A stretch of 64,000 nt of DNA, taken from the NCBI GenBank assembly GCA_014898425.1, contig RCSZ01000008.1, positions 2,442,001 to 2,506,000 on the forward strand. The letters run 5' to 3'. The position numbers were made by a program, and so were the translations under genes. The notes beneath the pieces are model-generated. The model worked only from the letters and a program-made list of their open reading frames with translations. It was not told where the DNA came from and did not search any database. This document shows, one piece after another, positions 31,280 through 50,874 of the stretch. The stretch is from Botryotinia globosa (lineage: Eukaryota; Ascomycota; Leotiomycetes; Helotiales; Sclerotiniaceae). Position 1 is the first letter of the stretch, and every line of letters starts with the position of its first letter.

Positions 31280-32234
31280 TCACAGTTCCTTCGCTTTCTC
31301 ATCGATACTATATGCACCTGGGCCATTGTTTACTAGAAGAATGAGACCTCCTGCAATAGATAAGGTTTGAAGAAAATCATATCTAGCAAAAGCTTTACGA
31401 GGATGCAACTGATGGAGCTGTATTAATGGTCAGCGCATTTTCTCGTTTGCAATTATCATCGTAAACTCACATTCCAAAAATCATTGATGAGAAAGTTGAG
31501 GACACTTAACATGGAGACGAGAACAACGGCGCTCATCTTTGCTTTGTATCCGACAGCGACCATAACGCAGACACCAAATCCAATGATGGATATGATGACG
31601 CTTAATAAATTCAATTCCAGGCTGCAAAAGAATGCAAGGAAGGTTAAAACAATGAGGACTCGACCGGCAAGCTGAATATACATCTTGTGGTCTTTTTCTT
31701 CAATCTCAGGTAAACCAGGTGTCGCTGATCTCCTGCGCGCCCAAGACTCGCAGAACATTATCAGCAACCCTCCAAGAACCGAAAGGTTACGCAAGAAGTA
31801 GCCAAAGTCCGAGATCATGCCATAACATAATGCTTGCGTTATAACCACGAAAATGAGGCCTCCAGCTGCAAATCCAGTGTGTTTTCTGGCAAGAACGAGT
31901 GAAGAGCAGGATAGCATCAAAAGAACATTAGTAAGAAGTATGAGATTAGCTAATGCGTAGTAAACTTGAAGTAAGTTAGCAAAAAATCCACGGTTAAGGT
32001 TAAACTTGCAGTACTGACTTTTTCGGTATTGATTCAGAAATATGAGCTGATTCTTCCACTCAGTAACAATCGTAAAAGCATCCTCCAAGAATGTCACGAC
32101 TATCAGGAATCTACCCGCGAGTGGTATATACCTCGAAAAATGTCAGTAAATAAATGCCTCAGCTATATAATTAAAAAAACCTACTGTTTGATGGTGCCAC
32201 TGTGGTCTTTTATAAAAGCTTCCATCTTGCTCAT
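31280..32234 (-). CDS. SURF4 / Erv29-family ER cargo receptor
   Basis: SURF4/Erv29 proteins are multi-pass receptors that load soluble secretory cargo into COPII vesicles. Minus-strand exons: 32234-32185, 32131-31471, 31417-31280. Splicing of the first intron (GTAGGTTT...CGAG) gives GTIKQ-YIPLAGRFLIVVTFLEDA, a strong family signature. Further landmarks are SSLVLARKHTGFAAGG, ITQALCYG, FFLRNLSVLGG-like FLRNLSVLGGLL and the last exon with FARYDFLQTLSIAGGLILL and DEKAKEL. As drawn it has 282 residues. A likely further 54-nt intron at 31965-32018 (GTCAGTACTG ... CTAAC ... CAAG) keeps the frame; removing it restores the expected YRKIYYALANL spacing and leaves 264 residues. The C-terminal KAKEL is compatible with a di-lysine-like retrieval signal, though not a canonical one. 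Confidence 0.87.
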
Positions 32235-32785
32235 TTAGTGGCTTGAAGAATTGAAATAGTCCATGTAACTGATGTGATTATGAGTGCTAATAGCGGTATG
32301 CGTGTCGTGTTTAATAGATGTAATATAAAAAAAGTATGAGTTCAAAAAACGAAATTAGTCTAGACGAACCGCCGGGTGTAAAGCTTTATTTACAGTTCTG
32401 TTTGGTGGTACTACATAATAAGTGTGACGGCGCAGTATCAGTATCCAGGCACTGGTGTTTAAAGGGGCACTATCATGTGGAGAGGCTTACTGCTGTAAGC
32501 GACTGCGCAAATTCCTGTCTAGAAAAATTGGAATGAATCTATACCCGATACTCCGAGGCCAAGTTTATTTGACGCAGTTCTTTCAAAGAGCAGCTGCCCT
32601 CGGAAAGAGTACGTCTCTGAACACACACCGAGGCCCTACAAACTTCTGACTATATATAGGCAGTCATTACAACGCTATCCTCTACTTACAACACAACACA
32701 TCCAGACATTCATATCAACATTCAACCTATTCACTAGATTCAAATTCCATCAACTCCATTTCCACAGCATACAGAATTCATCATC

Positions 32786-33089
32786 ATGCAGTTCTCTCAA
32801 CTCATTATTGCCGCTACCGCGCTTTTCGCTACCATCGCCGTTGCTGGTCCTTCCTACCCTAATTTGTTGGATACTCGCGAGCCTCATTGCTCCAATGGAG
32901 AGACTTGCGAAGGTGTTAACTCCGACACGTGTTGTTACAATGACGGTTGTTGTTATGTCTGCTCTGAGGGCTCTGATTCCGAGTGCTCCCCAGAGGTATG
33001 GTCAACTCCTGAAGCGATGCATAGAACGAAGACGCTGACTTAATTACTTATAGATCACCGAGCGCTCTATCTTCGCCGAGATTGCTTAA
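32786..33089 (+). CDS. Small secreted cysteine-rich protein, 81 residues
   Basis: Exons 32786-32995 and 33054-33089 (intron GTATGG...TTATAG). The N-terminus MQFSQLIIAATALFATIAVA is a textbook signal peptide with cleavage predicted at about AVA-G21. The mature part has eight cysteines in about 36 residues, spaced C-x6-C-x8-CC-x4-CC-x2-C-x8-C, which would allow four disulfides. There is no other domain. A TATA-like TATATATAG and a CAACACAACACA leader precede it. No homologue is recognised; knottin-like effector or antimicrobial peptides have similar size and spacing, but function is not inferable. It sits beside the transporter and the UstYa-like cluster. Confidence 0.7.
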
Positions 33090-33711
33090 ATAATCTGCGC
33101 ATTGATCAAAGCCTAAAGCACGGGAGAGGGGCTCCAAGCATTTTTCTTGGGTCTGAAGGGCTTAGAACTTGAACTGCAGAGTATATTAGTGGGATTAGAT
33201 AGAACTGGTGTAACTTTGTCTGAAGAAGAATGGATCTGGATCTGGGGCATTTCGAAATTCAAATACTCTCCACTGGCAGGTTTCCACACCCAGTTAGCGA
33301 ATATAAACGTTTTGGACCTCCATTATTGTGTTCTTTGTCGTTCGATACTTCATGTACCAGAATCTCTGATGTGTAAGTCTCAAACTAGCAACTTGGAAAA
33401 AGAGGATTTGTCAGCACAAGTCGAATATTCTCCTGTAGTCAATTTCGAGTTCATCATTGAATTAGCCTCCTTTCAAAGTAATATAAAACTTATATCTGGA
33501 TAATATTGACGACTCAAAATAAGTGCTGTAGTATGTTTTAGCAACAAATCGAGGCAAACTTAACTTTCACAAGGGCACCTACCGAATCGAAATCGGTTTT
33601 CTATCATCAGGCCAAAGCTCCGACAATCTTCTACTTGTGAGTAATATTTCAACTTTCTTGTTTTAAGAAGAAGAATCTTATTTAAATGAATTGATCATAA
33701 CATATTTCAGG

Positions 33712-34864
33712 TCATTGGTCTACAATTCGCGTATAAGGTGCCATTTCAATATCAACTATATCGTCTTCTCTATATCGATATCTTTGTATCACATACACAG
33801 CCTGAATAATCAGTACCGCACCCATGCCAGAAGTGACATCAGGTATAGTATGCCAGATCAGCCAATCTGCAACGAGAGCAAGAACCACCTGGCAGTAGAT
33901 CATATGAATGGCATAACTATTACCTTCATCAGAAAGCCCTGCTGTGAGAAGGTACTCCTAATTGACTCGGTCAGTGTTAATTAATGTTAGGGGAATGTCG
34001 TATTACCATGAAGGCTCCAGAAAGCCCAATACACCCCATGATAGACCACTGTAACAAGCCTAGATTAAAGTTGAAGTTGACTCCCGGAGCGGCAGCAAAG
34101 CAAACACTGCTCACAATCAGGATGGCAGTGGCAAAACAATTAGTTGTCACAAGTGGGTGTGATCGTGTCCCGATCTTGGAAATTGAAGAGTAAGCGCACT
34201 GAAAAGCTGACGTCAGTGGAATTCTAGGGGGAAAAATGATATGTTCAGCTTACTACTCCGCCCAGCACCCCGATCATTGCACAGGCCAGTCCGAGCCATG
34301 ACTGAGGGTTCAAAGTCTTCTGGTGATTATCTCCATCATTGTAGTAAAGCAGATCGGCGATGAAACTTGGTTTAGTGATAAGTCCCACACCAAGGAAACA
34401 AATCGCTATAGAACCAATCTGTATCAAGGTTAATCTTTTTGTTGTGACGAGGCTAGCTCCTAAGGGTGCGAGTAGGTTCATCGTTGTTGCGTCTGCCAGG
34501 GGGAGATACTGCAGAGAATCTGAGACGAAATTGATAGTCAGTCGAGGGTTCGAAGGTGAGGATACTCTTAACCTGATGTCAAACGATTGACAGGATACCC
34601 ACAATAGAATCCAGCTGAACCAAAAATGCCTCCCAGACTTCTAAGTATGAGCAGACCTCTGACACTTTTCTTACCGAGAGGCAGCTCCTTCGGATAGCGC
34701 ATCGTGAGGAAGAGACTGTTGATACTCAAAGTGATGAACATACGGACTTGGAGGATCTGTTGGGGGTCAACCGAGGTGGTTGTCTCTAGGAACTTGACCA
34801 AGCCATGAATCGTTACAGCAACAAATTGAGAAGCAAGTACTAGTAATGGTCCGTTGCTAATCAT
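33712..34864 (-). CDS. EamA/DMT-family transporter, 5' exon undetermined
   Basis: Drug/metabolite transporter superfamily protein with about ten helices. Minus-strand exons: 34864-34603, 34519-34254, 34198-34007, 33957-33712, all in phase. Joins give GSAGFYYSLQYLPLADATTMN (the EamA hallmark), LGGVCAYSSISKIG and SGAFMEYLLTAGLSD. These exons encode 321 residues with repeated LLILRSLGG and APLGASLVTTKRLTLIQIGSI segments, as in fungal SLC35-like members. The ATG at 34864 directly follows TTTTCAG, so it may be internal to an exon, with another coding exon further upstream (34880-35000) that I cannot define. It may export a product of the adjacent cluster, but that is inference from position only. 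Confidence 0.84.
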
Positions 34865-35366
34865 CCTGAAAAGACCAAAATAATAGAGTTGATGACTTGG
34901 CGGCTAAAGAAACACAACATCAGAAGAGCGTATGTATACTTGGAAGGAGCTGAAAGAAGATGAAGACTCATAATACATCTTCAATCATATCATTAAGCAA
35001 TTGCAGTACTGAGCTATCGCATAATGGGCTCAGGCTTCAGTACGGACTCCGCCCTCGCCAACTCACCCTCGATTGCCGGCTAACACTCAAAATTGAAACT
35101 CCTTCAATCAAGTAATGTGCTGCCCGGGCTTTTTTCACGATAAGGTTTTCTCTCGGGGTTCGTGAGAATTATTATGCGACTCTTGTTTAAAGTGTAAAGC
35201 ACCCTGCCCCGATAACCTTAAGCGAGCCGACGATCAGACCGGGTTTATTTCGCGGGGCACTTGCCACTTCAAATGAAAACCATATCGAACGGCTCCCTCT
35301 ACATCAAAATACTCATCACAGCCTTCCGATTATTTGAGCTCTTCTCGATTCACTGTTCAATCCAAC

Positions 35367-36479
35367 ATGGCTTTAATTTCGTCATTGTTCAATACTCAGG
35401 CCGAAAGATGGAGAGATCAACACACAGTCGACAAAACATCAACGGAAAGTGAAGAAAATTTGCTACCGAAGGATGAGGGCGACACAGAGGCACCGAGAGG
35501 ATTGAGAACTGTAAATAATACAACCCAAGTGGTCATCACAGTTACCATATTACTCCTTTGGGGTGCAGCGGCTTTTGTCGCGGGTACTATGACCAGTAAA
35601 ACGCAACGGGATAGTCCTTTCGGTTCGGCTGAAAATGGATTTGTTGAAGAGAGAATTATTAGTAAGTCGAATGAAATCTATGTTTTCTGCTTTCGCCTCA
35701 AGATCGTTGCTAACTTAACTTGACTAATAGCACCCTCTCAAACGTTTGAGCTCGTACAGACAAAATTTTCTGGCGGGGTGGACTTCACCCCTGAAGGCGT
35801 AGAAGTCCTCGCTCCCTCACTATATGTCGGCGAGCCTAGTCCTGAAATCGACGAAGCATGGAATGCTATCATCGGCGGAGAATCTCATTACTTTTCGGTC
35901 TCTGAGGATGAAGCTAGAAGCCTGTGGGGTACAGAATCTGACAGGTATAGAGACAGAATCAGGGGTGGGTGGACCGGCACGTGAGTTTACTCTTCCAGCT
36001 GGCTTACATATCTAACAGACTTAGGCTCGACATGTTTCACTGTCTACATTGCCTGGTATGTTTTGTACCAAACCCTGTTCGATATAAACGCCGCTGATAA
36101 TTTGGCAACAGAATCAATTAAGAAAAGCACTGCGGCGCGACGTCTATCCCGAGGAAGAACATCGAGGGATGATACACCAATGTAAGTAGAACAAGACCCC
36201 TCGTCCATTTGGAAAATCACAGCCAGTCTCATCAATTTTGCAGTGCATTGTATCGATCATTTAAGACAGGTGATAATGTGCCAGGGTAGCAGCGTAATAT
36301 CTCCCAGTGAATGGCATGATAAACGTGGCCAGTATATTAATCCTAAGCAACTTCATACCTGCAGAGCTTTCGAAAAGCTCCACGCGTTTTCCAAAGCGAG
36401 ATATAATGGAAGTATTGCTGTCCCGCGCGGGCCCAAGTTGCCACTGCACCCACATCCATCGGTCTCGCTCTTTACATAG
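35367..36479 (+). CDS. UstYa-like (DUF3328) oxidase 1, 293 residues
   Basis: UstYa-family proteins are membrane-anchored, copper-dependent-type oxidases that cyclise fungal RiPP (dikaritin) peptides. Exons: 35367-35661, 35731-35980, 36025-36055, 36112-36181, 36244-36479. After a polar N-terminus comes a single helix (about 54-73, VVITVTILLLWGAAAFVAGT), then the lumenal domain with EIDEAWNAII. The two family motifs are intact: H187-C-L-H190-C191, encoded by the 31-nt third exon, and H214-Q-L-H217-C218 followed by IDHLRQVIMCQGS. The C-terminus includes HTCRAFEKL, also common in the family. It is transcribed away from the EamA transporter, sharing a 0.5-kb promoter region. The exact chemistry is unknown without a substrate. 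Confidence 0.85.
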
Positions 36480-36887
36480 ATTCGAAGTAATACATGAAAT
36501 CTCTGAGCCAGTCCTTGTGTTTTATTCTCACATTGACTGTTCACGCCTGTATTCCAGTGATAACTTAAAGTCTTTCTGCACTTTTCCCATGGTATAAGCT
36601 CCTGCTTACTATTTTGAAGTATTCACTGAAAGCAGTTTGAAAATGAAATTATTGCAGACTTGACTAGTAATTCCGTTCTGGTCGAACGTACTTGAGTAAA
36701 CACAACGATTCTGATGCGATGAATTTTTAATAAATCGTAAATGTATGTTATACGGGAAATATCGCCTCAAAAATAAATCTAGCCAAGAACTTTCAACTCA
36801 CTTCCATTGTATAGCTACTACGAGAAAGCCATCAACATCCGCACTTCCCTTTTGAGGAAGCTTCTCATAATCACTTCACAAGCAATT

Positions 36888-37681
36888 TCAACCCTCCCAG
36901 CATATCTGATTCTGCGGCTTCACGTGAATCGGCGTTCCAGTCTTAAACAATGCCTCCTGAGTTGAGGTATAGTTCTCGGCGGTGTGAGCGGTCAGGATTC
37001 TTATACAATGCTCTATATGATGCTGACTTCTTGTGATCGAGTCCAAGACTGGACGTCTTGAGTTTGCGGCTTTTATTTGCTTTTCCCAGAGGAAACTATT
37101 ATTTCATAGCCCAATGTCAGTAAATGTATAGTACCACCACTTGAGAGCTTGGGATATCTTTTGCAGATGCTTTGCAGCCATAAATTAGCATAACAAGAGA
37201 TGCTTACTCACAGACAGTGCTGGGTGTGATATGTGGCGTGAGTGAAGATAATATTGAATTCTCCTTTCTGCACTTCTTCCCGTGAAAGCTGACCCGTGCC
37301 CTTGCTGTGCTCCCAAAATGTGAAGTTGTTAACAGCGAGGTATCGATCCGAGAGCTCTTTATCATAACACGGCTTGGGTAGCCATGAGGACATCATAATA
37401 TCGAAAACGCAACCGTTTGCTTTTGCTTCTGCGACCGACCACCCGCATTCTCCTCGGTGAGTCAGAGCATAAGGAGAGATAGTTGTGTAATGATTGTACA
37501 AAAGGAGGCCGGATGTCCATGCCAATATAATTGTTGCCGACAACACAATGTGAGTGTACCAGCTCAATTTTGCTCGTGGCTTTTGCTGGCGTTCGTACTC
37601 CTGGGGTGGAAACAGCGTGGAGTCGCCGCTTTCCGACCCTGTACCCAAGAGGGGCGATTTGAGATATTCCGGGGGTTCCAT
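36888..37681 (-). CDS. HxxHC-motif companion protein A (GCVFD-box family), 225 residues
   Basis: Minus-strand exons 37681-37212 and 37095-36888; the intron (GTGAGT...AATAG) joins HTQHCL to FLWEKQIK. It is a single-pass protein (helix about 43-62) with a lumenal domain containing GECG, then ANGCVFDIMMSSWLPKPCYD. Two HxxHC motifs (152-156 HTQHC, 183-187 HIEHC) lie in the same relation as in UstYa proteins. I recall this family as one often encoded beside UstYa genes and labelled phomopsin-biosynthesis-associated; that label should be checked. Biochemical function is not established as far as I know. The gene is divergent from UstYa-like 2 and shares its 0.4-kb promoter. Confidence 0.8.
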
Positions 37682-38077
37682 CTGTAAATATTCACCAAAC
37701 AGAATAAAGGATATAATAATAATTTCAAGAATGAGAACAAAGATTGGAAACTCTTAGTGTGCTGGAACAGGGTGATCCTGCATTAGATGTGAGGGTAAAG
37801 CAGGTGAAGGTCAAGAGATTCAAAAGAAATTGAATCAAACTAATAATGCTCACTAAGTTCAGGCGCTATAATGAAACCTCTTGAATGTTGCCCCTTTAAA
37901 GATAGCCTTCGAACCACTTCCCCCATCAAGCAGCGCTGCTAGTATTGCCCCCTTAAAGATCGGATAGACTCCCCACGTCAACATTAGGGTATATTCAGGT
38001 GGTCTGAGAGAAGACATGAATTCATCAGTCAGGGCGCGTCTTCTATCTCTTCCATCAAAAAATATCACAAGATCACG
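37682..38077. promoter_or_regulatory. Bidirectional promoter with two TGCCCC(T/C)TTAAAGAT sites
   Basis: Only 396 bp separate the starts of companion protein A (-) and UstYa-like 2 (+). The region holds TGCCCCTTTAAAGAT at 37889-37903 and TGCCCCCTTAAAGAT at 37946-37960, in the same orientation and 57 bp apart. A near-identical TGCCCCTCGAAAGAT lies at 40679-40693, upstream of companion protein B. Co-regulation by a cluster-specific factor is inference. Confidence 0.5.
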
Positions 38078-38860
38078 ATGAAATTTACCCGCTCCCGAAG
38101 CTACGAAGCAGTGCGCCATAGTGAAGATGGATCTGAAAATTCAAGTCCAGCTGTTCAGTCTCTCTCAATATCCTTCTTGTACATGGGGTGGGTGTTCGCT
38201 GCTCTTTTTGCATTCATCACTGGAGTCCAGATTTTTTTGCAATCTAAGATACACAAGAACCGCGATCTTGGTTCTGGTTCATTCGGTACTGGATTTAGTA
38301 CTGAGTTTGACTCATCAAAGCCTTATGTCCGACAAGAATCGAAAATGTTCTATGGAGGACCACGCTGGTACGGTAATGGTACTGGATACATAGTCCACAA
38401 TCCTTCCGAGCCAAGATACGTCGGACCGCCTACAGACGAAGTGGACGCGGCGTGGAAAGACTTGGTCAAAGGTCGATATTTCAACGTCACCGAAGAGGAG
38501 GCCGAGATCGCATTCGGGACACCTCACGGACTTTACAATCACCCTGGTCTGGGCTATCTCGTGGGACTGGATGTCTACCATGCTCTTCATTGCGTTGACG
38601 AGATCAGGAAAGCTTTGGACAAGGACTTCTATTACAATAAAAAGACAAAACATGCCTATCCAGATAGAGCACACCGTGATCATTGCCTAGATCACCTCAG
38701 ACAGCAGCTAATGTGCCATGCTGATCTCACACCAATACCTGTCATATGGTATGAAGGGCATGGGAGAAGTTTTGTCCAGTCGGATGTTGTACATACTTGC
38801 CGGAATTGGGATATGCTTCAGGAATTCAAGGACTCGAGGATTGTTGAGGCGGTATTTTAA
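38078..38860 (+). CDS. UstYa-like (DUF3328) oxidase 2, 260 residues, intronless
   Basis: A single exon. The N-terminal cytosolic stretch is basic (KFTRSRSYEAVRHSEDGS), followed by one helix (about 31-53) and the lumenal domain with FYGGPRWYG, PTDEVDAAWKDLV and FNVTEEEAEIAFG. The HxxHC motifs are H168-A-L-H171-C172 and H199-R-D-H202-C203 (then LDHLRQQLMC), and HTCRNWDMLQEF is at the C-terminus. All features match intact UstYa relatives. Unlike oxidases 1, 3 and 4 it has no introns, which suggests a separate origin or a retro-copy. It is divergent from companion protein A. Confidence 0.87.
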   Translation: MKFTRSRSYEAVRHSEDGSENSSPAVQSLSISFLYMGWVFAALFAFITGVQIFLQSKIHKNRDLGSGSFGTGFSTEFDSSKPYVRQESKMFYGGPRWYGNGTGYIVHNPSEPRYVGPPTDEVDAAWKDLVKGRYFNVTEEEAEIAFGTPHGLYNHPGLGYLVGLDVYHALHCVDEIRKALDKDFYYNKKTKHAYPDRAHRDHCLDHLRQQLMCHADLTPIPVIWYEGHGRSFVQSDVVHTCRNWDMLQEFKDSRIVEAVF

Positions 38861-39632
38861 GGATACTATGTATCTGGACGGGCTGTAGGGAAACAAAGAA
38901 AAGAGGAAGGATGGAGACACACGTAATGGTTGAATTCACTGTCTACAGGCACAATTTCGAGCATGCAAGTTAATAAATCGGTGCTGTGATAAGTATTTTT
39001 GTATTTCAATTACGTCCCACTTTATAACGAGTGGCGACATTTGTGAGGATATTTCGAGAGTTTTTATTCGACTGTATATCATTGAGAGTATGTCATATTC
39101 CGATAATGAATGTCGTCAGTAACATTTCAGATCCCAGCATATCGGGTCTTGCTTTGCTCCCATAAGCTTCAAATGCGACCAAGGCAGATAGATGTACTGT
39201 TTGAGGGCCTTCAATAAATCTACTTTACAAATTATCAGTGGATGGTTCTTAGGTAAAACAATCTGGCAGAGAACAATTGGAATTTTAAAGCCAAGAATAT
39301 CTTGCGAATGGCTTTTACATGAGCCAAGGAATTTTTTGTGCTTAATTTGGTTGTATTTGAAGGACCAAAAGCTGATAAGTGTATTTTGGGTTTGTGGATG
39401 TGGGATGATTGATGAGGACGAAGTCGGGATTCTGACTAACTTTGGTTGAGCGGGGTGGACTAAGAGAAGTAAGACGGTGAGAAAATTGTTGTCTGCAAGG
39501 CAGCAAGGTCTTCGAAAGAGTTTTTTCATGAATGGCTTGCACCCGTGTGACACAACATTTCTCTTCAATGCTTTTGAAAATGATTTCCCGCTCTGCTGTC
39601 ATCAACCACGCCTCCCCGCCACGATATTGGCT
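38861..39632. other. Intergenic region between convergent genes
   Basis: 3' flanks of UstYa-like 2 (+) and companion protein B (-). Open frames on both strands at 39116-39568 overlap each other, contain no recognised motif and are not called. Confidence 0.5.
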
Positions 39633-40349
39633 TCAAAAGACTTCCATCTCGCCGATCATACATTTAAGCCTGAAAGCCGATCTCTTGATCTTCGTCCCAG
39701 TCGCAAGCTGGAGCTGAGTAATGTTCGGGCTCCCGACCCGGTGGTAACAGTGCTCAACGTGCTCTTTAGAACGTGAAACACTGTCTAGAACAAGAGGAGA
39801 CTTCTTATTCGCACGGATCTGCTTGGCCCAAATGTAGGCACAATGTTGATAGTGAAAAGTCCCATGACTGTATATAACCTCGTAGTTGCCCAGACGAGCC
39901 TCTGCTTCTGTCATGATATTGATACCCTCTCTTTCCCTATAAAAGGTGAAATTATTTACCCACAGAAACTCGTCGGACAGTTCTTGGTCGTAACAAGGAG
40001 GATGTACCCAACCGGACATCATGAGATCAAAGACGCACCCGCTGTCTCGGGCTTGTTGTGGTGTACGCCCGCATTCACCCATGTTTATAAACTGGGCTGA
40101 CGATGGGCTGAAAGAAATACTCTCACTGAGAATCGAGCCAATACCAAATATAACTAACAAAAATGCTAACCCGACATAAATGCCCATGTACTGCCACTTC
40201 CTGATATAACGCAGATGCGCATTATCGTCAAGTTTCTTATCGTCGCACAGAGGCGGCGACAATGTTCGATCGCTGCTGCAATCTTCCGAGATTGCCGGGT
40301 AGGCTTGCTCAGTCTCTGCCTCTCCTAGAAGTGCCAGTCTCTGCTCCAT
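39633..40349 (-). CDS. HxxHC-motif companion protein B (GCVFD-box family), 238 residues
   Basis: A single exon from the ATG at 40349. It parallels companion protein A: a polar N-terminus, one helix (about 55-73), GECGRTPQQARDSGCVFDLMM, SGWVHPPCYDQEL, VNNFTFY, then HYQHC (166-170) and HVEHC (197-201). Between the two motifs both proteins share a W-x-K-Q-I-[KR] and PVLDS/PLVLDS stretch, so they are clearly paralogues. The C-terminal 35 residues (NITQLQLATGTKIKRS and beyond) diverge. The intron present in protein A is absent here. A TGCCCCTCGAAAGAT site lies 330 bp upstream. Confidence 0.8.
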   Translation of the reverse strand: MEQRLALLGEAETEQAYPAISEDCSSDRTLSPPLCDDKKLDDNAHLRYIRKWQYMGIYVGLAFLLVIFGIGSILSESISFSPSSAQFINMGECGRTPQQARDSGCVFDLMMSGWVHPPCYDQELSDEFLWVNNFTFYREREGINIMTEAEARLGNYEVIYSHGTFHYQHCAYIWAKQIRANKKSPLVLDSVSRSKEHVEHCYHRVGSPNITQLQLATGTKIKRSAFRLKCMIGEMEVF

Positions 40350-41136: not shown

Positions 41137-42253
41137 TCACGTATGATGTTCTTCTAATGGATACATCCAGTTCCGCAAAGCACTAAAATCTCTGCAAATA
41201 TGCCACATATCTGTGTCTGCATGATGTATATTAGTAGGCCTCAGAGTTCTTGGAATTGGAGTCATATCAAGCTGACACATAAGGAGCTGGTGAATCTGCA
41301 TTAAACAATGTTCTGCGTCCAATTTAGTTATGAAAAGCATCCTATAGATTCATATCTCCAACTTACTGAGATGCATATCAAGCGGTCTTTGTGGATTTGG
41401 ATCTGTTACGGGGCCAAAGTACCACTCAGGTGACAGTGACATTCTTATATAATTCTGACTTTGGGGTCAATTTTTGACATAGGGTTAAATTGAATTCAAA
41501 CTTACTAAACAATGAAGTGAATGTAATCCATTTGTCCTGCAAAGAGAAAACTCGATGGTTAAAATGCTATTCTCCACACAGATCAGAAAGAACTTGCTCC
41601 AAACGTATAGTCCCGTTCACCAAGTCTTTTTCTAAGAAATCAACCGCTTCCCATGGCCAGTCTTTGGGTGGAACAGCAATAAATCGATCTGGACAACGCG
41701 ATTAGTAAAGCTCAGGTTTTCACTGTAGTTTGAAACATGCCTTTTAAATCGAGATTCCAATGGTGGTCTGTTTCACGACCAGGTATGCCAAAATAGTCGG
41801 GGCCAGGTGGCCGAGTGAGAGACGCGGTGCCGTTCTCATCATAAACAAATCCTCCATAAAACTTGACCCTTTTCAAAGCTAATGTGTTACGATTAGGTCC
41901 TATAGGGTATCAGCTTCCCACATCATTTCGATGCCTCATCATCAGAATAACCCACTTATTTCAGTCTTGAATCCTCTCTCATAACTACCTAAAGGACCAT
42001 CACAGTCTGCAGCTTTCCCCAACATCGTGCTGACCAACGCTACTGCAAGTAATACTGATAGAGTGTAGAGGAATATGGCGTGGAATCTAGAGATGCCGTT
42101 TCTATTACGGAAAGTTGTTGAGTCCACTTCTGCTGCTTTTGTCCTGATATCCTCTGTGTCGCTCTCATGGTGATTGGATTGAGGAATGTTTATGTAAGCG
42201 TGAGGCAGTATGTTGCGGAAGCCGGTCCGGAAGATGACAAGCAAAGAAGCCAT
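41137..42253 (-). CDS. UstYa-like (DUF3328) oxidase 3, 286 residues, six exons
   Basis: Minus-strand exons: 42253-41956, 41899-41741, 41688-41580, 41536-41506, 41454-41367, 41312-41137; every phase fits. The second intron starts GCATGT, a GC-AG donor. After a polar N-terminus comes one helix (about 57-77, AIFLYTLSVLLAVALVSTML) and a lumenal domain with KRVKFYGGF and PGPDYFGIPG. The first motif H194-S-L-H197-C198 sits in a 31-nt exon, as in oxidase 1; the second, H227-L-K-H230-C231, is created by splicing exons 5 and 6. The tail has MCQLDMTPIPRT and WHICRDFSALRNWM. Exon limits are my reading, but restoring both motifs in frame makes them credible. Confidence 0.8.
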
Positions 42254-42375
42254 GTGTTGAATTCATAGACGTCCACTAATTAAACGTCTCAAGTCGTGCC
42301 TCCATTTCTACCAGGCACTTATATTTGGATGTAAGTCAAGGTTGCCAAAGCAAAGTGAGGGATGTTTTGATATGG

Positions 42376-42463
42376 GCATTGTTTGAGAGGACAATTGCCT
42401 CCTGGAACAATTGAGATGCGCATTGTTTAAGAGGACAGTTGCATCCTGGAACAATTTTATGAA
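42376..42463. repeat. Two tandem 44-bp direct repeats upstream of UstYa-like 3
   Basis: Unit 1 at 42376-42419 and unit 2 at 42420-42463 both start GCATTGTTT and contain GAGGACA(A/G)TTGC and TCCTGGAACAATT. Only three mismatches occur in the first 38 bp. Unit 1 includes GAGGACAATTGCCTCC, which is nearly palindromic. They lie about 120-210 bp upstream of the start codon, a sensible place for operators. Confidence 0.7.
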
Positions 42464-43559
42464 TCGTCCACATTTCGCAAATTAAGACGATTTGACCCCG
42501 GCAGATTTTGTACAAACTTGATCTACTCCCCTTTTCGTGACGAATCGAAGACTCGCGCCAGAATGAATCGAATGTTGCTTTAAAATTATAGATTTTGTTT
42601 AAATATTATGAGCCGCTTAACGCTTTAATTCGTGTTGGCACTCAACTCTCTTCAGAGGAGCGTCGTGAAGAGGACACACTTTCTGTAGAATTTGAATTTG
42701 AAAATGCTTGGAGCAGCGCATGGCCATCTGGAATAGATTTTAAATTTCTGACACGGGAAACTCGGAAACTTGCATCATAATAAGCTTTCGGCTCTTCTTA
42801 CTTCTTCAGAGGCTGAACGGCGGTAAATTTGGAGAGCAGTACGGACTAATGAGCCGAATAAAACCCGCTGTAACATCATCCTATAGATTTGAAACGAGGA
42901 TGGAAAAGCTTATTTCAAATCAAGCTTTCATATCTTCTTATCATTTCATATCATACAATTAAGGGAGTGATTGAAATGACAACACGCTAAGAAAACTAAA
43001 CTCAATCGAGTATCATTCAATCACTACCTTTTTGAACAAAAACTGATTTAATACCTTTTTCTTTTTTATAATATAAAGCCTTGTTATAAACTTTCAATTA
43101 TTGAATTATAAGGATTTTTAGAGCTCTTATAGTTTATATCGATTAAATCTATTAGTTAATATGATATCTATCTCCTGATATAATACTCAAATGTAATTCA
43201 CCGATTTAATTGAAAAGAAAGCTATTATAGTGTTTATTTGTATTAAGCATTCAATCCGGTTTTTTCTTTAGTATTTAGATTTTCCGTGATTCCTCGTTAA
43301 ATTTAGACTTCAATTAATATATTACTATTTCAATTGTTCCGTTTATATTAATATCTCTTCTAACGTATAAGGAGCGGTAGAAAACAGCTGACTTGACTGA
43401 GTGAATAATAATTCGTATCTACTAGAAAGTGTAATACAAAAGATGATCTCTTCGTACTCTACTTTATTACTAATCTGTGGAAAGAATCTCTATTAACGTC
43501 TATCTTTCGTCTGAGGTCGATTGATAAGCAGTATTAGGTTTCTAAGGAGAGATATTATA

Positions 43560-43980
43560 CACCCCGCTTTTTTTCGATAATTGGAGGTTTACCTCCTTAA
43601 TATTCTTGCCGCCCGCGAGGACTAAAGGTATATATACACACGAAAAAAGAGAACTCTCGCTTAGTAAGTCCCGATTCAAGCAATCTGATTGGCTTGATTC
43701 AAGCGATCTGATTGGCTTGACTTCCTTGGCACTGTAGCTATAGTATAGATTCTTAGGGGTTTTCAATAAAATTATCTAAATTAGTTGAATAAAAACAAAA
43801 CAAAAGTGGTAACTATATAAAAGAAGTTAAGAGCTTTAAAATGATATAATTTTTATAATACTAGTTTCAAAATTAAGAGTTTTCCAAAGGGTTGAAGTTT
43901 AAGTAATATAGATATAACTAGAGCTTATATAATCAATTGAAAAGGGTTTATATCGAATGTAGTAAATCTATTATTAATTA
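43560..43980. repeat. Dispersed repeat, copy 1 (GGAGGTTTACCTCC start)
   Basis: Starts near GATAATTGGAGGTTTACCTCC, continues with CTTGCCGCCCGCGAGG, a GATTCAAG-CAATCTGATTGGCTTGA duplication and a long AT-rich body. Closely related copies start at about 43990 and 54178. The differences are mainly transitions. It carries no coding capacity. Confidence 0.65.
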
Positions 43981-43984
43981 AAAT

Positions 43985-44560
43985 TATTTTTATTGAAGGT
44001 TTACCTTCTTAATATTCTTGCCGTCCGCGAGGGCCGAAGGTGTATATACACGAAAAATTCGATTTGGAAACTATCGGTTTAAAATGAATCGCGATCCTAG
44101 CCATCTGATTAGTCATAAGTCTTTCGTAACGTTCTTGGCGTTGTGGCTGAATTAATAGTAGAATCTTTTGAATCAGCTTATTTAAGCTAATATGAATTGA
44201 ATAAAAAAGAAAAAAAAGTAGTAACTATATATAAGAGATTAAAGGCTTTCAAATAATATATTTTTTATATTGCTAGCTTCAAAACTGAGGTCTTTATAAA
44301 GGATTGAAGTTGAAATAGTATAAATATAACTAGAGTTTATATAATCAATTAAAAAAGGTTTATATTGGATGTAGCTGATCTAATATTAATAAAAATTACT
44401 TTAATACTATAGCTTTCATAGTTCAGTAGTATAATTGATAATCTGATGTGAAGTGACCCACTAAAATCTAAATAAAATTAAAAAATCTGAATAACAAAGG
44501 TAAACCGACTTCGCCTGCAAGCTTTCCATAAAATTTCTTTTTTAGATTCTTATAATTATA
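43985..44560. repeat. Dispersed repeat, copy 2, with tRNA A-box-like sequence
   Basis: Same beginning as copy 1 (TTTACCTTCTTAATATTCTTGCCG). At 44419-44429 it has TAGTTCAGTAG, a full match to the tRNA A-box pattern TRGYNNARNNG, and it ends with GGTAAACCGACTTCGCCTGCAAGC. The two ends share GGTTTACC in inverted orientation. The type (SINE-like or TIR element) is unresolved. Confidence 0.6.
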
Positions 44561-44584
44561 AATATAATTATACGAGCTTTTTTC

Positions 44585-44660
44585 GGCCCTTCGGGGCTAA
44601 AAATAACAACGGGCTCGCTAACGCTCTCCGTAGTTATTTTTCACGCCCCTCAGGACCTAC
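44585..44660. repeat. GC-rich hairpin island in AT-rich DNA
   Basis: CGGCCCTTCGGGGCT is followed by a 14-bp inverted repeat, AAAAATAAC(A)ACGG paired with CCGT(A)GTTATTTTT at about 44598-44641. It stands out against surrounding DNA of very low GC. Confidence 0.65.
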
Positions 44661-44731
44661 GTTTATATTTATATTATATAGCTTTTAGAATTCTAAAAAT
44701 AAATAAGATTTATATTTTTATATTTTTATGT

Positions 44732-44954
<223 letters not shown>

Positions 44955-45587
44955 CTTTATTAACCTCTAGCTTTTAGCTTATATAAAATATTAAAGGTAT
45001 AATTAAACCTCAAAATCTTATAAACCTTAAAACCTCAAAACCTTATAAATCTTATAATTCTTTTTCTAATTCTTTTTCTAATTCTTTTTTTCTAATTCTT
45101 TTTTATTTTTATTTTTAATTCTTTTTTTTAATTATTTTTTAATACTTTATTTAATTATTTTTCTAAATTCTATTGTTTTAATTTCTATTTCTCTAATTTC
45201 TATTTCTCTAATAAATCTAATCTCTTTTCTTTTCTTTTTAATCTTTTCTCTTATCTCTCTTATTATTAATCAAATCTGAATCGATTAGAATTGTATTAAC
45301 AACTTTTTATTGAACTTTTTATTACAAAATCAACTAAACAATGAATATATTAATAACAACTCTTTTTTTTTATATAAAAATAATATTATTTAAAAGCTAT
45401 TAATATAAAGAATATAAAAATATTAATTAATTATATTTCATAAATCATTTATAATTATTATATCTATTAATAATAATATCTAATCTAGATTAGGATTTTG
45501 ATATTCGCTACACAGACCTTACGTACTTTCTAGACCAATCAGCTTCCAGTTATGAACCGTGTTTTAAATCCTGTATGTTAGAGATAA

Positions 45588-45641
45588 TACTTTCTCAAAA
45601 AGCAAGGGGTCCGGGGGCTCGCAGGCCCCTGGTATATTGAT
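45588..45641. repeat. Conserved 54-bp GC-rich palindromic repeat, copy 1
   Basis: Starts AATACTTTCTCAAAAAGC and contains GGGGTCCGGGGGCTCGC followed by AGGCCCCTGG, able to form a stem. An identical copy lies at about 55123-55176. Confidence 0.8.
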
Positions 45642-45899
45642 ATATTTTTGAATAGGAGCGATTAAAATTGCGATACACTAGGGAAAATAAACTCAATTAA
45701 ATATTATTTAATTACTTCTTATAAGAAGGAAGTCAATTCTTCTTATTTTTGTTATAATATAAAATCTTACTTAAGATTTTTAAAGCTCTAAAATTCTTCA
45801 ATTTAATTATTGAAAGTTTATAATTTCGACTCGATTATTAATATAATATAGAAAAGAAAGTAATTCTTATATTTTATTTACTATATGTTATATAGAGTA

Positions 45900-46695
45900 G
45901 AAGTCGGATAACTCACTTTTGAGCTATTCTCATATACTAAAAATTACTTTTTAGCCTATTAATATCTCTATTAATATAGAATGTAATATAATTTAATAAA
46001 AATTTCTTTTTATATAATTCAAGCCATTTTAAATCTATTCTAAAAGTTTCAGATTTTTAGTATTTTTGTAGATCGATTTCTAAGACTTTAAAATATCGAT
46101 TTTTCAATTTGTATAGAAATCACATAAAAATTTAAAACTTTATAAAATCTAGAATAATTTTCAAAGAAAATAACTAAAAAATAAATTATAAATTTTATAA
46201 TAAATTTATAGTACATTCTCTTTAGAAGCTTTAAAAATATAAGAAAATCTTTATTATTAAATTTTTAAAGGATAACTTCTGAAATTGTAGAGATTATTTT
46301 TATTCATTTAAACTATTTCTCTATATCTATTGAATTTTTTTTAAAAAAATTGAACTTCTATATAGATTCAGATTTAAAAAACTTAAAATAATAAATAGTT
46401 TTCTTTTAATGATTGTTGTTAAAAAGTTATTAAAGATTATATAAAAGTTTTAAATATATATATAATTCTTATACAAATTTAAAAATCGATATTTTGAAGC
46501 TTTAGAAATCGATCTACAAAAATCCTAAAAATCTAAAATTTTCAGAATAGACTTAAAATGACTTGAATTATAATTATAAACATAAATTTTTATTGAATTA
46601 CATGCTATATTGATAGAAATATTAATAAGCCAAAATAGTGATTTTTTGATGTAAAAGGGTCGCCCGAAATAGGGGTGGCCCGAAAGTAGGATGAT
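45900..46695. mobile_element. Large foldback element, about 0.8 kb
   Basis: Two long arms (about 45900-46130 and 46465-46695) are inverted copies: AAAGTTTCAGATTTTTAG and TTTGTAGATCGATTTCTA on the left match the complement of TAGAAATCGATCTACAAA on the right. The outer ends pair GTCGGATAACTCAC with the complement of GTGGCCCGAAAG only if many G-to-A and C-to-T changes in the left arm are allowed. No coding capacity. Boundaries and target duplication are not resolved. Confidence 0.65.
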
Positions 46696-47370
46696 CGACT
46701 TAAATTGTAGAATTTCACTGAGGTTGGTAATGTGTGCCTATATCGGTTCTTAGCTTTTCCGTGATTCTTTATTAGGCTTAAGTCGTAATTAGCGTGTCGC
46801 TATTTCAATCGCCCCCTTTTGAGCAACGTTTGCTTGGTTCACAATTTGAAAAATCCGAAAGTTTTTCAAATTCGTTCTTCGAGAGAGGCCTATATCGGCA
46901 CAACACACTTACTTATCTTGATAATAATGCTTGACAGAGCCTTTTGTTATCTTCCAGGTTGTTTCATGTAAAGCTTTTACAACTTCCTACCCATTCAGGT
47001 CGTTCGAATAGGTAATGGTACTTGATAAAAACCCTCATAGAATAACTTCTGAATTTAGAACATGATAGGGAAAATGCTATCTCAAGTTAAGGTTTCGGCC
47101 TTCTGATTTCTTTATACGATGGGCTTTCTTTGGACAGCAGGACTTGTTGACAACCGCCCACGGTTCTCAAGTGCGATCGTCAGCCTGCAACAGAGATGCC
47201 ACAATCTCTTTATAAACTTTAATCTGATGCAGTGTTGGAGATAATCTCGATGGCACGATGGTACTTATGGTAGTACATCATTTTGTTTATAAAGACCCGG
47301 GTCTTGCGTAGCCTAGACACTTGGCAGCTTAGCGAATTGAATTTTAAATATTCAAGCGCAGGCAAACAAC

Positions 47371-49199
47371 ATGATTCGAAGACAGCTACTAGAACCCGTC
47401 ACGGAGTTTCAACTGGCACTAGAAAACGTGTCTCTGGGGGATGTAGTTCAATCACCGGTCAGCTCTTGCCTCATGATTTTGATGCGGATGATGCTTCTTG
47501 TGTGTTAGAATGCTAACTGACCCTAAATATTAGGATGCTCTACATAGCTTCCGGAAATTTTTGCGACGTGGAACCATTCTACAGCGACGACAACTTCTTA
47601 TGGAAGCGCAGAAGCTCTCCCCTCAAACTTCATTGTCACATGATCTTCATCTCATTCAATCGCCGTCCCTAGAATTTGACAACAGTACTACCTACACATC
47701 TGATGTCACATCTGAAAACTGTAAGAAGCGGCGTCTGGACGATCTGTTGCAGCAATCCAGTCCTCTGAATGGCTCTACTCGCAAGTGGAGAGCTCAATCC
47801 TCAAGGGCGGCCTCTAGTTCATCAAATACCACTGCACACTCCCCCTCTAATAAGACGGTCTCTTCAACTACGTCCTACTCTCAAGAAATTGACAAAGACC
47901 CAAAGGATGGCCATGTTGAAATTGATATCGATAAACATGTAGCAGCTTATGGAATGACGCCGGAGCATGTACAGTCGCCGCGAACTGCATCTTATGACCC
48001 ATCCAGCAATCCCGCTATTCCCAACATCCTTGTCAAGGCGAGGGAGTTCTTTGAGACGCGGCTTACTAAGCGCGCGAACCGCGCTAAATATCTTGTTCGC
48101 GCCGTCCAGGGTTTCTTGAGGCACCTCAGCTCCCGTGCGATTTTGCAAAGGAGATGTGGAATAAGAAGTCGGCCATCTTCTCTAAACCAGGAGTTACAGG
48201 CTCCACAGCTCGTTTTCGAAGTCTCTACGAGGGTCATCGAAAAATTAAAAGAGGCGGGGAGGAATATCTCGCTGCAGCTCGCTTCTGTTATATCTATTTG
48301 GAACATGATTTGGAGCAGATAATTCAATCTCAAAAACTTGTTTTGTCTCAAGGTAGAGGAAAAGTGACGGCTGCCTTTCAGCTACAGGCGAAGAACATCT
48401 CCATCACCATGGACGCTCTTCGAGCTGAACGTAAGGCCGGTCGAGGATACATTCGACTTTTGATGGAAGGCGGACCTGGTTTCGTGCTTCGCATGGGTAG
48501 CAATGTATCGACTATGTAAGTTTCATTCTTCTACGGTCAATGCTTTAGGTGCTAAAGAATTTATTCAGATGGGAAAGAAAGCTTAGTGTTAGCGATATTA
48601 CTCTTATTATAGAGTTCATCAAGACCTATGCCGTCGAGTTATATGACGAGATTAAGTCATACGATCAAGCTGCTGTACAAGCACTTCTAAATGGCTTTAT
48701 CGCATATGGTTGGACCAGCACGGAGATTCGTGAAACAAAAAGTTCGCTGTTTGACGAATTACAACGCTATGCCAATTTAAACGACCAATGCCCTGGAAAA
48801 ACAATAGAAGAGAATTCTAATATAACGTCTCTCGCAACACCAATATCAGAAATCTGGGATGGTGTAATGAGACAAAATGATTCCCCATGTATGCTTTCAG
48901 ACCTAGATCTGCTCCTGGAAGAGGGAAATCAGACGATGCCGATGCCAACGACCTCCGAGGAAGACCCAGAATCAGTTCTTGGCAGCGACGACTTCGGTTA
49001 TATCGAAACGACGACTCTGGAGCTTGATCAGCCTTTTTCGGAAGAGGATTTGGAGATAATGTTTGATACAATAGAGACTTCTAGCTCTGAGATACAACAT
49101 GATCTCGCTTTCTTCCACGAGCTCTTCCCAGATTTTACTGCCTATGAAACTTCCGTTCATTCTCTAAACAGTGAGTGTTTAGACACGCTAGTCGGATAA
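47371..49199 (+). CDS. Uncharacterised fungal protein, apparently frameshifted
   Basis: Exon 1 at 47371-47457 (MIRRQLLEPVTEFQLALE) joins in frame through a good intron (GTCAGC...TGCTAAC...ATTAG) to exon 2 from 47534, and exon 2 joins exon 3 (48569-49199) through intron 48516-48568. Within exon 2 the frame in use changes near 48090-48130: upstream is ARAKYLVRAVQ-like basic sequence, downstream is PQLPCDFAKEMWNKKSAIF, one frame over, and no intron explains it. The protein has a basic helix (FRKFLRRGTILQRRQLLMEA), a Ser-rich linker, then an all-helical conserved-looking region (KPGVTGSTARFRSLYEGHRK, KTYAVELYDEI) and an acidic tail. No DNA-binding motif is certain. It could be a regulator, but I do not recognise it. 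Pseudogene or sequence error remain open. Confidence 0.6.
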
Positions 49200-49886
49200 T
49201 AATCTCGTGGTACTTGGTCCAAGCGTAGGATCTTGTATTTGAAAATATCCAGCGTATTTCTTTGTCTTCATCTCGACGACACAGATTGAGATTTATGTAG
49301 GCCGCTCTGATTTTCAAGTTCGAGCAGTGCCAGTCAATACTTTGGAACTTCGATGCAAATGTGGGTATTGAAAGGCATAGATGGTAGAAAGTCTTTCTGG
49401 TCATACGACTGTTACGGCAAGATGTTTACGCTTCGGGCTCTTACTTATATAAGTACGAAGTAAATCGAGTATCAGCCTGAAAAATGGGAGTGTCTCCTTT
49501 TTGCGGTATATCGGGGCTCAATTTGTCTTGTTCTGCTAAAGAATAAATCATGAAAGCATGCATCCTGAAGGCATCTTAACCATACCCTGGTGCTGATACA
49601 TTGTTATACGACGCTCTTACACATGGCAATTGTTAAATGAATAAACGCTAGTGGTTGCGCTATCTGAATAGTGTTCATGTCTCCTGAGATGTCGATCGAT
49701 GGAGCGGATCGAGTGTTCATGAATCAGAAAAGGCTTAAATACCGTTCCGTAATTCCGATTGTGTATCTAGTACAATTTCAATGAAAAAAATAGATAAATT
49801 GGCACAATATGGTGGGACTACAAAGCCGATGGATACAAGATTGGGAAGAAGTAGACAGTTGTCATTTCCCTTCTGTGTAATACTCG
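49200..49886. other. Intergenic region, no gene seen
   Basis: Convergent 3' flanks of the hypothetical gene (+) and UstYa-like 4 (-). Nothing recognisable. Confidence 0.5.
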
Positions 49887-50874
49887 CTATTTACGACGCC
49901 ATATCCACCCACCATCCGCTTTGACAACCGCACGACTCCATATCGCATCCATCAAAACCCTTTCATCACGACAAACGTGCTGTTGCTGTGAAGGCCATCT
50001 CGTAGAAGAGGGAAGCCCCTTGGGACGCTGCACACTCAAGTCTGCTTTACACAAGATAAGCTTCAGATGAAAGTCAGTACTTCTTCATACTTTGATTCCT
50101 TGAAGAACTGAAGAAAGTCGAACGCACCTGTCTTAAAGTTTCTATGCAATGATTCGTGTGAACGTGCTGCTGCGCCGTCATTGCACTACGATTCTCGTAG
50201 GACAAATAGTGTTTTAGGACACCCTACAAAGAATTGTTAGCCAGGCCGTTACGAAAGCAATAGCTGAGGTTTATTTCTGCGCACAACACAGTGTATCTGA
50301 TGCAAAAAAGCCAACCCAAATCCCTGACTTCCAGCCACAAAATCGGTCGAATTTTGTGCTTCAGCACTTAATTCCACTCCCCCCTCGAACCCAAATTGTT
50401 GTGGATTTTCGACCGCAATGAAATTGCTTGGGTAAATATCGTCCCAAACTGTAGACCGACGGTCGGGTTCAAAGTTTTGATTTTTGTAGAGAGTCCAAGC
50501 CTGGCCATCGTACGGATCAACATGAAGAAACTTATCATTTCCACCGAAAGTCTGTCTAATCCATGGAACTAGAGAAAGTAAGTTGACGTATTTACATTGA
50601 GAGAGATAAGGACATAGGAAGAGGTCATACTGTCACCAAAAATGGTGCGGGTCGTATAATCATTCTCTGGATGTGAAGAAATGCGTAGGCTCAAGACTAG
50701 AAGAAGCAGGAAGACAGGGCTTAGTATTGCGGAGAGAGAAACTATCTTCCCTCCAAGTCCATAGAAATGTGATTGTGTTGGCGATATCGGGTCTTCTTCC
50801 GACTCAATGAAAGAATATTCTCCAGGAGTACGACCTGAAGATAATTTGGCTTGAAGTGAACTTATAGGACTCAT
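49887..50874 (-). CDS. UstYa-like (DUF3328) oxidase 4, 265 residues
   Basis: Minus-strand exons: 50874-50631, 50568-50285, 50223-50128, 50060-49887, in phase throughout. The N-terminus (SPISSLQAKLSSGRTPGEY) precedes one helix (about 44-64, IVSLSAILSPVFLLLLVLSL). The lumenal domain has YPSNFIAVENPQQFG, and the motifs H171-Q-I-H174-C175 (FLHQIHCV, split from GVLKHYLSY by an intron) and H198-T-N-H201-C202 (IETLRQ, then LILCKADLS). The tail ends in a basic GWIWRRK. Only exon 1 forms a long open frame, so the gene is easily missed. It is separated from the other family members by the AT-rich block and the hypothetical gene. Confidence 0.84.

What the first reader, a model, noticed from the sequence alone, without database searches (positions are those of the whole stretch)
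31280..50874. Six-gene HxxHC oxidase locus without a visible RiPP precursor
Four UstYa-like genes and two GCVFD-box companion genes lie within about 15.5 kb, all with one N-terminal helix and two HxxHC motifs. Established knowledge: UstYa-type proteins oxidatively cyclise dikaritin peptides such as ustiloxin and phomopsin. In the sequence I find no Kex2-repeat precursor, tyrosinase, methyltransferase or peptidase nearby. This could be an undescribed pathway with several oxidases acting on a substrate encoded elsewhere or not peptidic at all. The Cys-rich secreted protein and EamA transporter next to it, and the ER cargo receptor beyond, are candidate partners by position only.
Basis: partly seen in the sequence, partly recalled or inferred. 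Interest (0 to 1): 0.9.

Follow-up and report, generated by a model that had tools for sequence, protein, structure and literature searches.

The report
Conserved fungal copper-oxidase gene cluster
Near a chromosome end of a Botrytis-type fungus sits a conserved set of four copper-oxidase-like genes and two genes of a second, unnamed family that shares their metal-binding motif; the oxidases are of a known kind, their substrate is not visible, and the unnamed partner family is the part worth testing.

Summary
Observation confirmed. The window lies within the last 69 kb of a telomere-capped contig, most likely of Botryotinia globosa. All six genes splice into intact frames with one N-terminal membrane helix and two HxxHC motifs. 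Four (genes 1, 3, 5, 6) pass the Pfam UstYa/DUF3328 cut-off; the two GCVFD genes do not and belong to a family without a Pfam model. The locus is more than chance: homologues of genes 1, 3, 4 and 6 recur in twos and threes on 19 further contigs (matched by length), with neighbouring locus tags in seven named genomes. Distant relatives of the companions lie about 2.5 kb from a UstYa gene at 3 of 5 other places in this genome, one beside a textbook Kex2-repeat precursor. At the locus I found no repeat precursor, tyrosinase, S41 peptidase or NRPS; the one small secreted ORF is a single-copy Cys-rich protein. But about 68% of DUF3328 genes have no repeat precursor nearby in a published survey, so that absence is weak evidence for a new pathway. 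Best reading: a conserved oxidative tailoring cluster of known enzymology, perhaps on a ribosomal peptide in the secretory lumen, with an undescribed HxxHC companion family as the novel part.

The parts
35367..36479 (+). gene 1, UstYa-family oxidase, 295 aa, 5 exons; HxxHC at aa 189 and 216
   Evidence: spliced model; PF11807 112 bits; homologues
36888..37681 (-). gene 2, GCVFD companion, 225 aa, 2 exons; HxxHC at aa 152 and 183
   Evidence: PF11807 16.7 bits, below cut-off; 37% identical to gene 4 over 177 aa
38078..38860 (+). gene 3, UstYa-family oxidase, 260 aa, single exon; HxxHC at aa 168 and 199
   Evidence: PF11807 141.5 bits; 24 homologues; weak AF2 model
39633..40349 (-). gene 4, GCVFD companion, 238 aa, single exon; HxxHC at aa 166 and 197
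   Evidence: no PF11807 row; 23 homologues incl. EAF00_006594 of B. globosa (246 aa there); AF2 model
41137..42253 (-). gene 5, UstYa-family oxidase, 286 aa, 6 exons (one GC-AG intron); HxxHC at aa 194 and 227
   Evidence: PF11807 85.3 bits
49887..50874 (-). gene 6, UstYa-family oxidase, 265 aa, 4 exons; HxxHC at aa 171 and 198
   Evidence: PF11807 71.4 bits; identical to EAF00_006597 (P0048)
33712..34978 (-). EamA-type transporter, 347 aa, 5 exons, divergent from gene 1; candidate partner by position only
   Evidence: model; PF00892 57.8 bits
32786..33089 (+). small secreted Cys-rich protein, 81 aa, 2 exons, 8 Cys; candidate substrate by position only
   Evidence: no Pfam; one match in the genome; signal-peptide heuristic; splice
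31280..32234 (-). SURF4/Erv29-type ER cargo receptor, one of two loci in the genome; exon borders not modelled
   Evidence: PF02077; two loci; ends
47371..49199 (+). uncharacterised gene between genes 5 and 6, pieces in several frames, no Pfam match at E 0.01, one match in the genome; start by eye

Best explanation
A conserved oxidative tailoring cluster, subtelomeric in Botryotinia globosa. Four UstYa-family (DUF3328) proteins, each anchored by one helix with the catalytic domain in the secretory lumen, hold paired HxxHC helices that bind two coppers; reduced copper and O2 abstract hydrogen from a C-H bond of the substrate, giving cross-links, hydroxylation or similar. Two companion (GCVFD) proteins carry the same paired HxxHC helices plus a conserved cysteine box and act with the oxidases, most simply as partner subunits. 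The most likely substrate is a ribosomal peptide passing through ER and Golgi, whose precursor is not a recognisable Kex2-repeat gene in the window. Shown here: gene content, motifs, anchor helix, conserved neighbourhood of genes 1, 3, 4, 6, recurrent pairing of companion-like and UstYa genes, absence of the usual precursor. Inferred from the family: copper, lumenal topology, chemistry. Guessed: peptide substrate, partner role of the companions.
For: Six intact HxxHC proteins; PF11807 for four. Conserved neighbourhood: 14 of 15 non-self gene 4 homologues on contigs of 10 kb or more share a contig length with a gene 1, 3 or 6 homologue, and locus tags lie close together: Coleophoma cylindrospora BP6252_10259/10260/10261 = genes 3/1/6; C. 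crateriformis BP5796_09306/09310 = 6/4; Oculimacula 9245/9248/9250 = 4/3/1; Phialocephala 02398/02402 = 4/3; Rhynchosporium secalis 06928/06934 and Neoarthrinium 004340/004343 = 4/1; B. porri 0699g00030/00090 = 1/6. In this genome 3 of 5 companion-like places outside the window lie 2.2-2.6 kb (hit midpoints) from a UstYa exon hit, about 1e-6 by a simple binomial; one (C12) also holds a signal-peptide, Kex2-repeat precursor. CctR is a lumenal, dimeric, binuclear copper enzyme whose HxxHC residues are essential (PMC12435403, parts 1 and 2 of 3 read).
Against: No precursor is seen, so a peptide substrate is not shown; CctR's own substrate is a non-ribosomal peptide. No close homologue of gene 2 or gene 5 was in the listed rows, not even from B. 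globosa's own annotation, so their place in the conserved set is untested. The five other companion-like genes are distant (24-28% identity); all five keep two HxxHC motifs, but the only box my pattern found (C12) reads NCVME, not GCVFD. 2 of the 5 have no UstYa hit on their contig. Companion and UstYa profiles align only weakly (hhalign 25%). No expression data.
Confidence: 0.5

Rival explanations
1. The oxidases tailor a non-ribosomal or polyketide small molecule whose scaffold enzyme is encoded elsewhere, as the UstYa-family enzymes of the cyclochlorotine pathway do with a non-ribosomal peptide.
For: CctR, CctO and CctP2 belong to a non-ribosomal peptide pathway (PMC12435403); copper-dependent halogenases carry the same two motifs (PMC12871659, passages); the genome has condensation domains on other contigs.
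Against: None of the 23 condensation-domain hits is on this contig, and no PKS or NRPS piece was among the 40 window proteins or ORFs scanned with Pfam. I did not search genome-wide for PKS or terpene cyclases. That the cyclochlorotine NRPS sits in the same cluster as CctR is recalled.
Confidence: 0.25
2. The Cys-rich secreted protein at 32,786 is the substrate: a single-core, non-repeat precursor modified in the lumen, perhaps with the neighbouring SURF4 copy as its cargo receptor.
For: In a heuristic signal-peptide scan of 30.5-51.3 kb it is the only candidate above 31 aa that does not overlap the six genes, EamA or SURF4 (19 rows; one row of 47 aa overlaps this gene in another frame); one match in the genome; beside one of two SURF4 copies.
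Against: No dibasic site in the protein; eight cysteines, as in ordinary disulfide-rich secreted proteins; it lies outside the block shown to be conserved, and its own conservation was not searched.
Confidence: 0.08
3. A decaying cluster that has lost its precursor: subtelomeric, with about 4 kb of AT-rich sequence between genes 5 and 6.
For: The contig ends in telomere repeats 18.5 kb beyond gene 6; AT-rich sequence at about 42.9-47.1 kb and beyond 51.2 kb (by eye).
Against: All six frames are intact with motifs and splice sites kept; B. porri has five locus tags between genes 1 and 6, the same number of genes as here, which suggests a stable arrangement.
Confidence: 0.12
4. An accidental crowd of unrelated UstYa genes without common function.
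For: UstYa genes are many here: 37 exon hits in 22 places.
Confidence: 0.02

Closest known systems
Dikaritin clusters (ustiloxin, phomopsin, asperipin-2a, victorin)
   Same: UstYa/DUF3328 oxidases clustered; tailoring in the secretory path (PMC9233826 and PMC12048977, passages)
   Different: no Kex2-repeat precursor, tyrosinase or S41 peptidase found at this locus
CctR, CctO, CctP2 of cyclochlorotine (DUF3328; CctR copper-dependent)
   Same: one TM helix, HxxHC(x)nHxxHC, same Pfam family for genes 1, 3, 5, 6
   Different: no condensation-domain hit on this contig; two companions of another family
C12 locus of the same genome (C12:1,482,020-1,488,219; L013, L004)
   Same: a companion-like gene with two HxxHC beside a UstYa gene
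   Different: has a signal-peptide precursor with three NxFYAVQ repeats between KR/KK sites; its companion is a distant relative with a diverged box
Family of gene 4 (homologues P0025-P0047)
   Same: gene 4 belongs here; gene 2 is a 37% relative
   Different: unnamed: where a source names it, hypothetical or uncharacterized protein, once 'Major facilitator superfamily transporter protein'; no significant Pfam-A row for gene 4

Membership tests
UstYa/DUF3328 (PF11807) | score above the Pfam cut-off (25 bits), genes 1, 3, 5, 6 | tested here: met
   112, 141.5, 85.3, 71.4 bits
UstYa/DUF3328 (PF11807) | score above the Pfam cut-off, genes 2 and 4 | tested here: not met
   gene 2 16.7 bits, gene 4 no row; they are not filed as UstYa
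UstYa/DUF3328 (PF11807) | two HxxHC motifs | tested here: met
   6 of 6 proteins
UstYa/DUF3328 (PF11807) | one N-terminal TM helix | tested here: met
   one hydrophobic stretch in each of 6; helix 31-60 in the gene 3 model, 44-77 in the gene 4 model
UstYa/DUF3328 (PF11807) | binuclear copper, dimer, O2 chemistry | not testable with these tools
   shown in print for CctR (PMC12435403)
Dikaritin cluster | signal-peptide precursor with Kex2-separated repeats | tested here: not met
   none found in window, 20 kb upstream, 5.4 kb to the telomere; the scans found two such genes elsewhere in the genome
Dikaritin cluster | tyrosinase | tested here: not met
   13 hits listed genome-wide, none in the window; the one on this contig is at C8:753,110
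Dikaritin cluster | S41 peptidase | tested here: not met
   one weak hit genome-wide, on C4
Dikaritin cluster | methyltransferase | tested here: inconclusive
   no Pfam methyltransferase among 40 window proteins or ORFs scanned, not every ORF; ORF 24,353-25,165 has a SAM-motif-like stretch by eye but no Pfam row
Dikaritin cluster | multiple DUF3328 genes | tested here: met
   four
Dikaritin cluster | transporter | tested here: inconclusive
   EamA gene adjacent; membership in the conserved set untested
Companion (gene 4) family | GC-FD-MM box with further cysteines, plus two HxxHC | tested here: met
   41 invariant columns in 23 rows for gene 4; gene 2 has GCVFDIMM and two HxxHC. The five distant relatives in this genome keep the two HxxHC, not the exact box

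The most novel reading that the evidence does not exclude
The companion proteins are the missing partners of UstYa copper oxidases: HxxHC subunits that pair with them or feed them Cu(I) or electrons, the kind of accessory protein that the CctR authors postulated. This cluster, spread over three classes of fungi, would be a UstYa-companion system acting on a precursor type without Kex2 repeats.
Probability: 0.17. Interest if true: 0.75.

Novelty: new variant of a known kind. Interest (0 to 1): 0.45.

Why it matters
UstYa oxidases are newly recognised copper enzymes, and how they obtain Cu(I) and electrons in an oxidising lumen is open (PMC12435403). A second HxxHC family that travels with them across fungi, with a distant relative in a locus that has a textbook RiPP precursor, is a concrete candidate partner and a marker for clusters that mining by Pfam model or by repeat precursor would overlook.

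Tried and rejected
Precursor scans. Scan 1: stop-to-stop ORFs of 45 aa or more with dibasic-separated repeats or a 5-mer three times over; 3282 ORFs in the window and 39 loci, printed rows limited to GC above 0.33; 12 rows, none in the window or L017-L019. Scan 2: dibasic site plus 8 residues, any frame, same GC limit; 6 rows in the window, 8 in L017 and 2 in L019, partial matches that I take for chance or AT-rich repeats. Scan 2 missed the in-frame repeat of the C12 control, so the two are complementary, and a single-core precursor would escape both.

Structures: gene 4 model pLDDT 74.0, pTM 0.61; gene 3 model 60.3, 0.42, too weak to argue from. Foldseek against PDB with the gene 4 model gave 42 rows, none at E 0.001 or better; PDB sequence search gave 4 rows at E 0.54 or worse for gene 4's alignment and none for gene 3's. 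Homology of companion and UstYa by profile was only 25% probable; I rely on shared motifs and helix order. P0073 (Penicilliopsis zonata) carries a companion part (GCHFD) and a UstYa part in one predicted chain with four HxxHC, but may be two neighbouring genes merged by annotation. The contig pair of length 1165 (P0006, P0045) was dropped: both proteins do not fit on it.

Papers: eight searches. Botrytis globosa with gene cluster found 0 papers, Botryotinia globosa 2, listing only, HxxHC 15, listing only. None of the listings or passages that I saw describes the companion family; that is one open library and no proof of novelty. Whether the known dikaritin clusters hold a companion gene was not tested. 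After checking, the novel-case probability was lowered from 0.2 to 0.17, because one search shows that the distant relatives in this genome do not keep the exact GCxFD box.
Full report
What the window is. Contig C8 is 2,511,391 bases long, the same length as the contig of gene 4's identical database entry, EAF00_006594 of Botryotinia globosa, so I take the window to be B. globosa (Leotiomycetes, Sclerotiniaceae). The contig ends in TTAGGG repeats. Gene 6 lies 18.5 kb from that end, and the last 5.4 kb have 20.7% GC. Beyond gene 6 I saw only AT-rich sequence, so the locus looks like the last gene-bearing stretch of a chromosome arm. Enrichment of secondary-metabolite clusters at subtelomeric places was reported for the related Sclerotinia sclerotiorum (PMC6941272, passages).

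The six genes. Reading and splicing gives six intact frames of 225 to 295 residues, each with one strongly hydrophobic N-terminal segment and two HxxHC motifs. Two of the second motifs straddle an intron (genes 1 and 5) and still read correctly, which argues that these are real genes. Pfam puts genes 1, 3, 5 and 6 in UstYa (PF11807) well above the cut-off; gene 2 scores 16.7 bits and gene 4 has no PF11807 row. The whole-genome PF11807 search lists 37 exon hits in 22 places; it shows genes 1, 3 and 5 but not gene 6, so it is a lower bound.

Conserved neighbourhood. Gene 3 gave 24 homologues, gene 4 gave 23, and an alignment of genes 1, 2, 5 and 6 gave 187, of which 120 are listed. Hits were assigned to genes by local BLASTP. 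For one search I used 23 of 24 gene 3 hits (one has no contig), all 23 gene 4 hits, 8 gene 6 hits and 20 gene 1 hits; weaker gene 1 relatives near 40% identity were left out. Contigs were compared by length, a proxy. 21 lengths carry two or more kinds; without the window's own contig and the impossible 1165-base pair 19 remain, some of them from Botrytis species and some from unnamed metagenome or assembly contigs. Of 15 non-self gene 4 homologues on contigs of 10 kb or more, 14 share a contig length with a gene 1, 3 or 6 homologue; P0040 does not. On megabase contigs this alone is not adjacency, but locus tags are close: Coleophoma cylindrospora 10259/10260/10261 are genes 3, 1, 6; C. crateriformis 09306/09310 genes 6, 4; Oculimacula 9245/9248/9250 genes 4, 3, 1; Phialocephala 02398/02402 genes 4, 3; Rhynchosporium secalis 06928/06934 genes 4, 1; Neoarthrinium 004340/004343 genes 4 and 1 with two tags between, as here; B. 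porri 0699g00030 and 00090 genes 1 and 6 with five tags between, as here if the unnamed gene at 47 kb is counted. Gene 6 therefore seems to belong to the set in spite of the AT-rich stretch that separates it. No close homologue of gene 2 or gene 5 is in the listed rows, not even B. globosa's own entries, so that search says nothing about them.

Spread. In a gene 1 tree of 24 rows Leptodontidium P0053 falls inside the Botrytis clade (100/99), and Neoarthrinium, a Sordariomycete, groups with Oculimacula and Rhynchosporium (100/99), which are Leotiomycetes, as Pyrenophora and Bipolaris are Dothideomycetes (these classes recalled). This suggests some horizontal transfer, not tested against a species tree. 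The gene 3 tree is mostly unresolved.

The companions. Gene 4's alignment of 23 rows (window row and 22 of 23 homologues; one homologue is the same gene) has 41 invariant columns, among them the cysteine of the GC-FD box, three further cysteines (C93, C119, C230) and both HxxHC motifs. The gene 4 model puts each HxxHC near the start of a helix, 165-181 and 195-205; block means of pLDDT are 87-94 over residues 91-200. Gene 3 has the same order of helices in a weaker model. Profile comparison is only suggestive. In this genome gene 4 finds five further places at E 1e-9 to 1e-3 and 24-28% identity. All five carry two HxxHC motifs, but the box is not kept exactly; at C12 it reads NCVME. Three are 2.2-2.6 kb from a UstYa exon hit; two (C3, C5) have none on their contig among the 37 listed. 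Under random placement three or more of five would have a probability near 1e-6. One predicted protein of Penicilliopsis zonata joins a GCHFD-box part and a UstYa part, fused or merged.

Precursor. At C12 the companion-like gene lies beside a gene with a signal peptide and three repeats ending NYFYAVQ, NIFYAVQ and NWFYAVQ between KR and KK sites (splice by eye). At C4:438 kb, 2.5 kb from a UstYa exon hit, a signal-peptide gene carries many EPELSYVNS repeats after KR over several exons (splice by eye). These two are positive controls: the second came from 10 other UstYa places of which I held about 20 kb each, the first from short pieces of further places. Nothing like them was found in the window, in the 20 kb upstream (L018, L019) or to the telomere (L017). 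A heuristic signal-peptide scan of 30.5-51.3 kb gave 19 rows; apart from those overlapping known genes only the 81-residue Cys-rich protein and two ORFs of 24 and 31 residues remain. The Cys-rich protein has one match in the genome, no Pfam match and no dibasic site.

How unusual is that? The Kex2-repeat survey (PMC7329392, passages) counts 2991 DUF3328 genes near such precursors, 31.8% of 9399. So about two thirds have none nearby; lichen clusters with signal-peptide genes but without repeats are also reported (PMC12048977, passages).

Mechanism. CctR, a DUF3328 hydroxylase, is a membrane-anchored, lumenal dimer with two coppers per chain at the HxxHC pair, uses O2, needs Cu(I), and its authors hypothesise an accessory protein that transfers electrons or delivers Cu(I) (PMC12435403, parts 1 and 2 of 3 read). 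By family, genes 1, 3, 5 and 6 should work alike. That the companions are such partners is my inference from motif, cysteine box and recurrent pairing; nothing here shows it.

Context. Left of the locus are ordinary genes: arylsulfotransferase, SDR, BBE-type FAD oxidase, nitrilase-type hydrolase, PHM7-type channel, carbonic anhydrase, carboxylesterase. SURF4 has a second copy on C9; which is the housekeeping one was not determined.

Noticed in passing
L013 2546-2847 (C12:1,484,565-1,484,866): Textbook Kex2-repeat precursor with cores NYFYAVQ/NIFYAVQ/NWFYAVQ beside a companion-like gene and a UstYa gene: a likely dikaritin-type cluster.
   Followed up: partly
L031 3093-4204 (C4:438,093-439,204): Multi-exon signal-peptide gene with many EPELSYVNS repeats after KR, 2.5 kb from a UstYa exon hit: a second likely RiPP precursor.
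   Followed up: partly
C14:952,010-967,074: A tyrosinase hit about 11 kb from three UstYa exon hits, a combination known from dikaritin clusters.
   Followed up: no
P0073, Penicilliopsis zonata: One predicted 369-aa chain holds a GCHFD-box companion part and a UstYa part with four HxxHC motifs; real fusion or merged gene models.
   Followed up: partly
gene 1 tree, P0053 and P0078: A Leptodontidium copy nests within Botrytis, and Neoarthrinium among Leotiomycetes: possible horizontal transfer.
   Followed up: partly
window 31280-32234: One of two genomic copies of a SURF4/Erv29 cargo receptor lies beside the cluster.
   Followed up: partly
window 47371-49199: Gene without Pfam match and with one match in the genome between genes 5 and 6; basic KKRR stretch and acidic C-terminus by eye.
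   Followed up: partly
window 24353-25165: ORF with a SAM-binding-like motif by eye but no Pfam match.
   Followed up: no
L017 5232-5391: Telomere repeats at the contig end, so the cluster is subtelomeric.
   Followed up: yes
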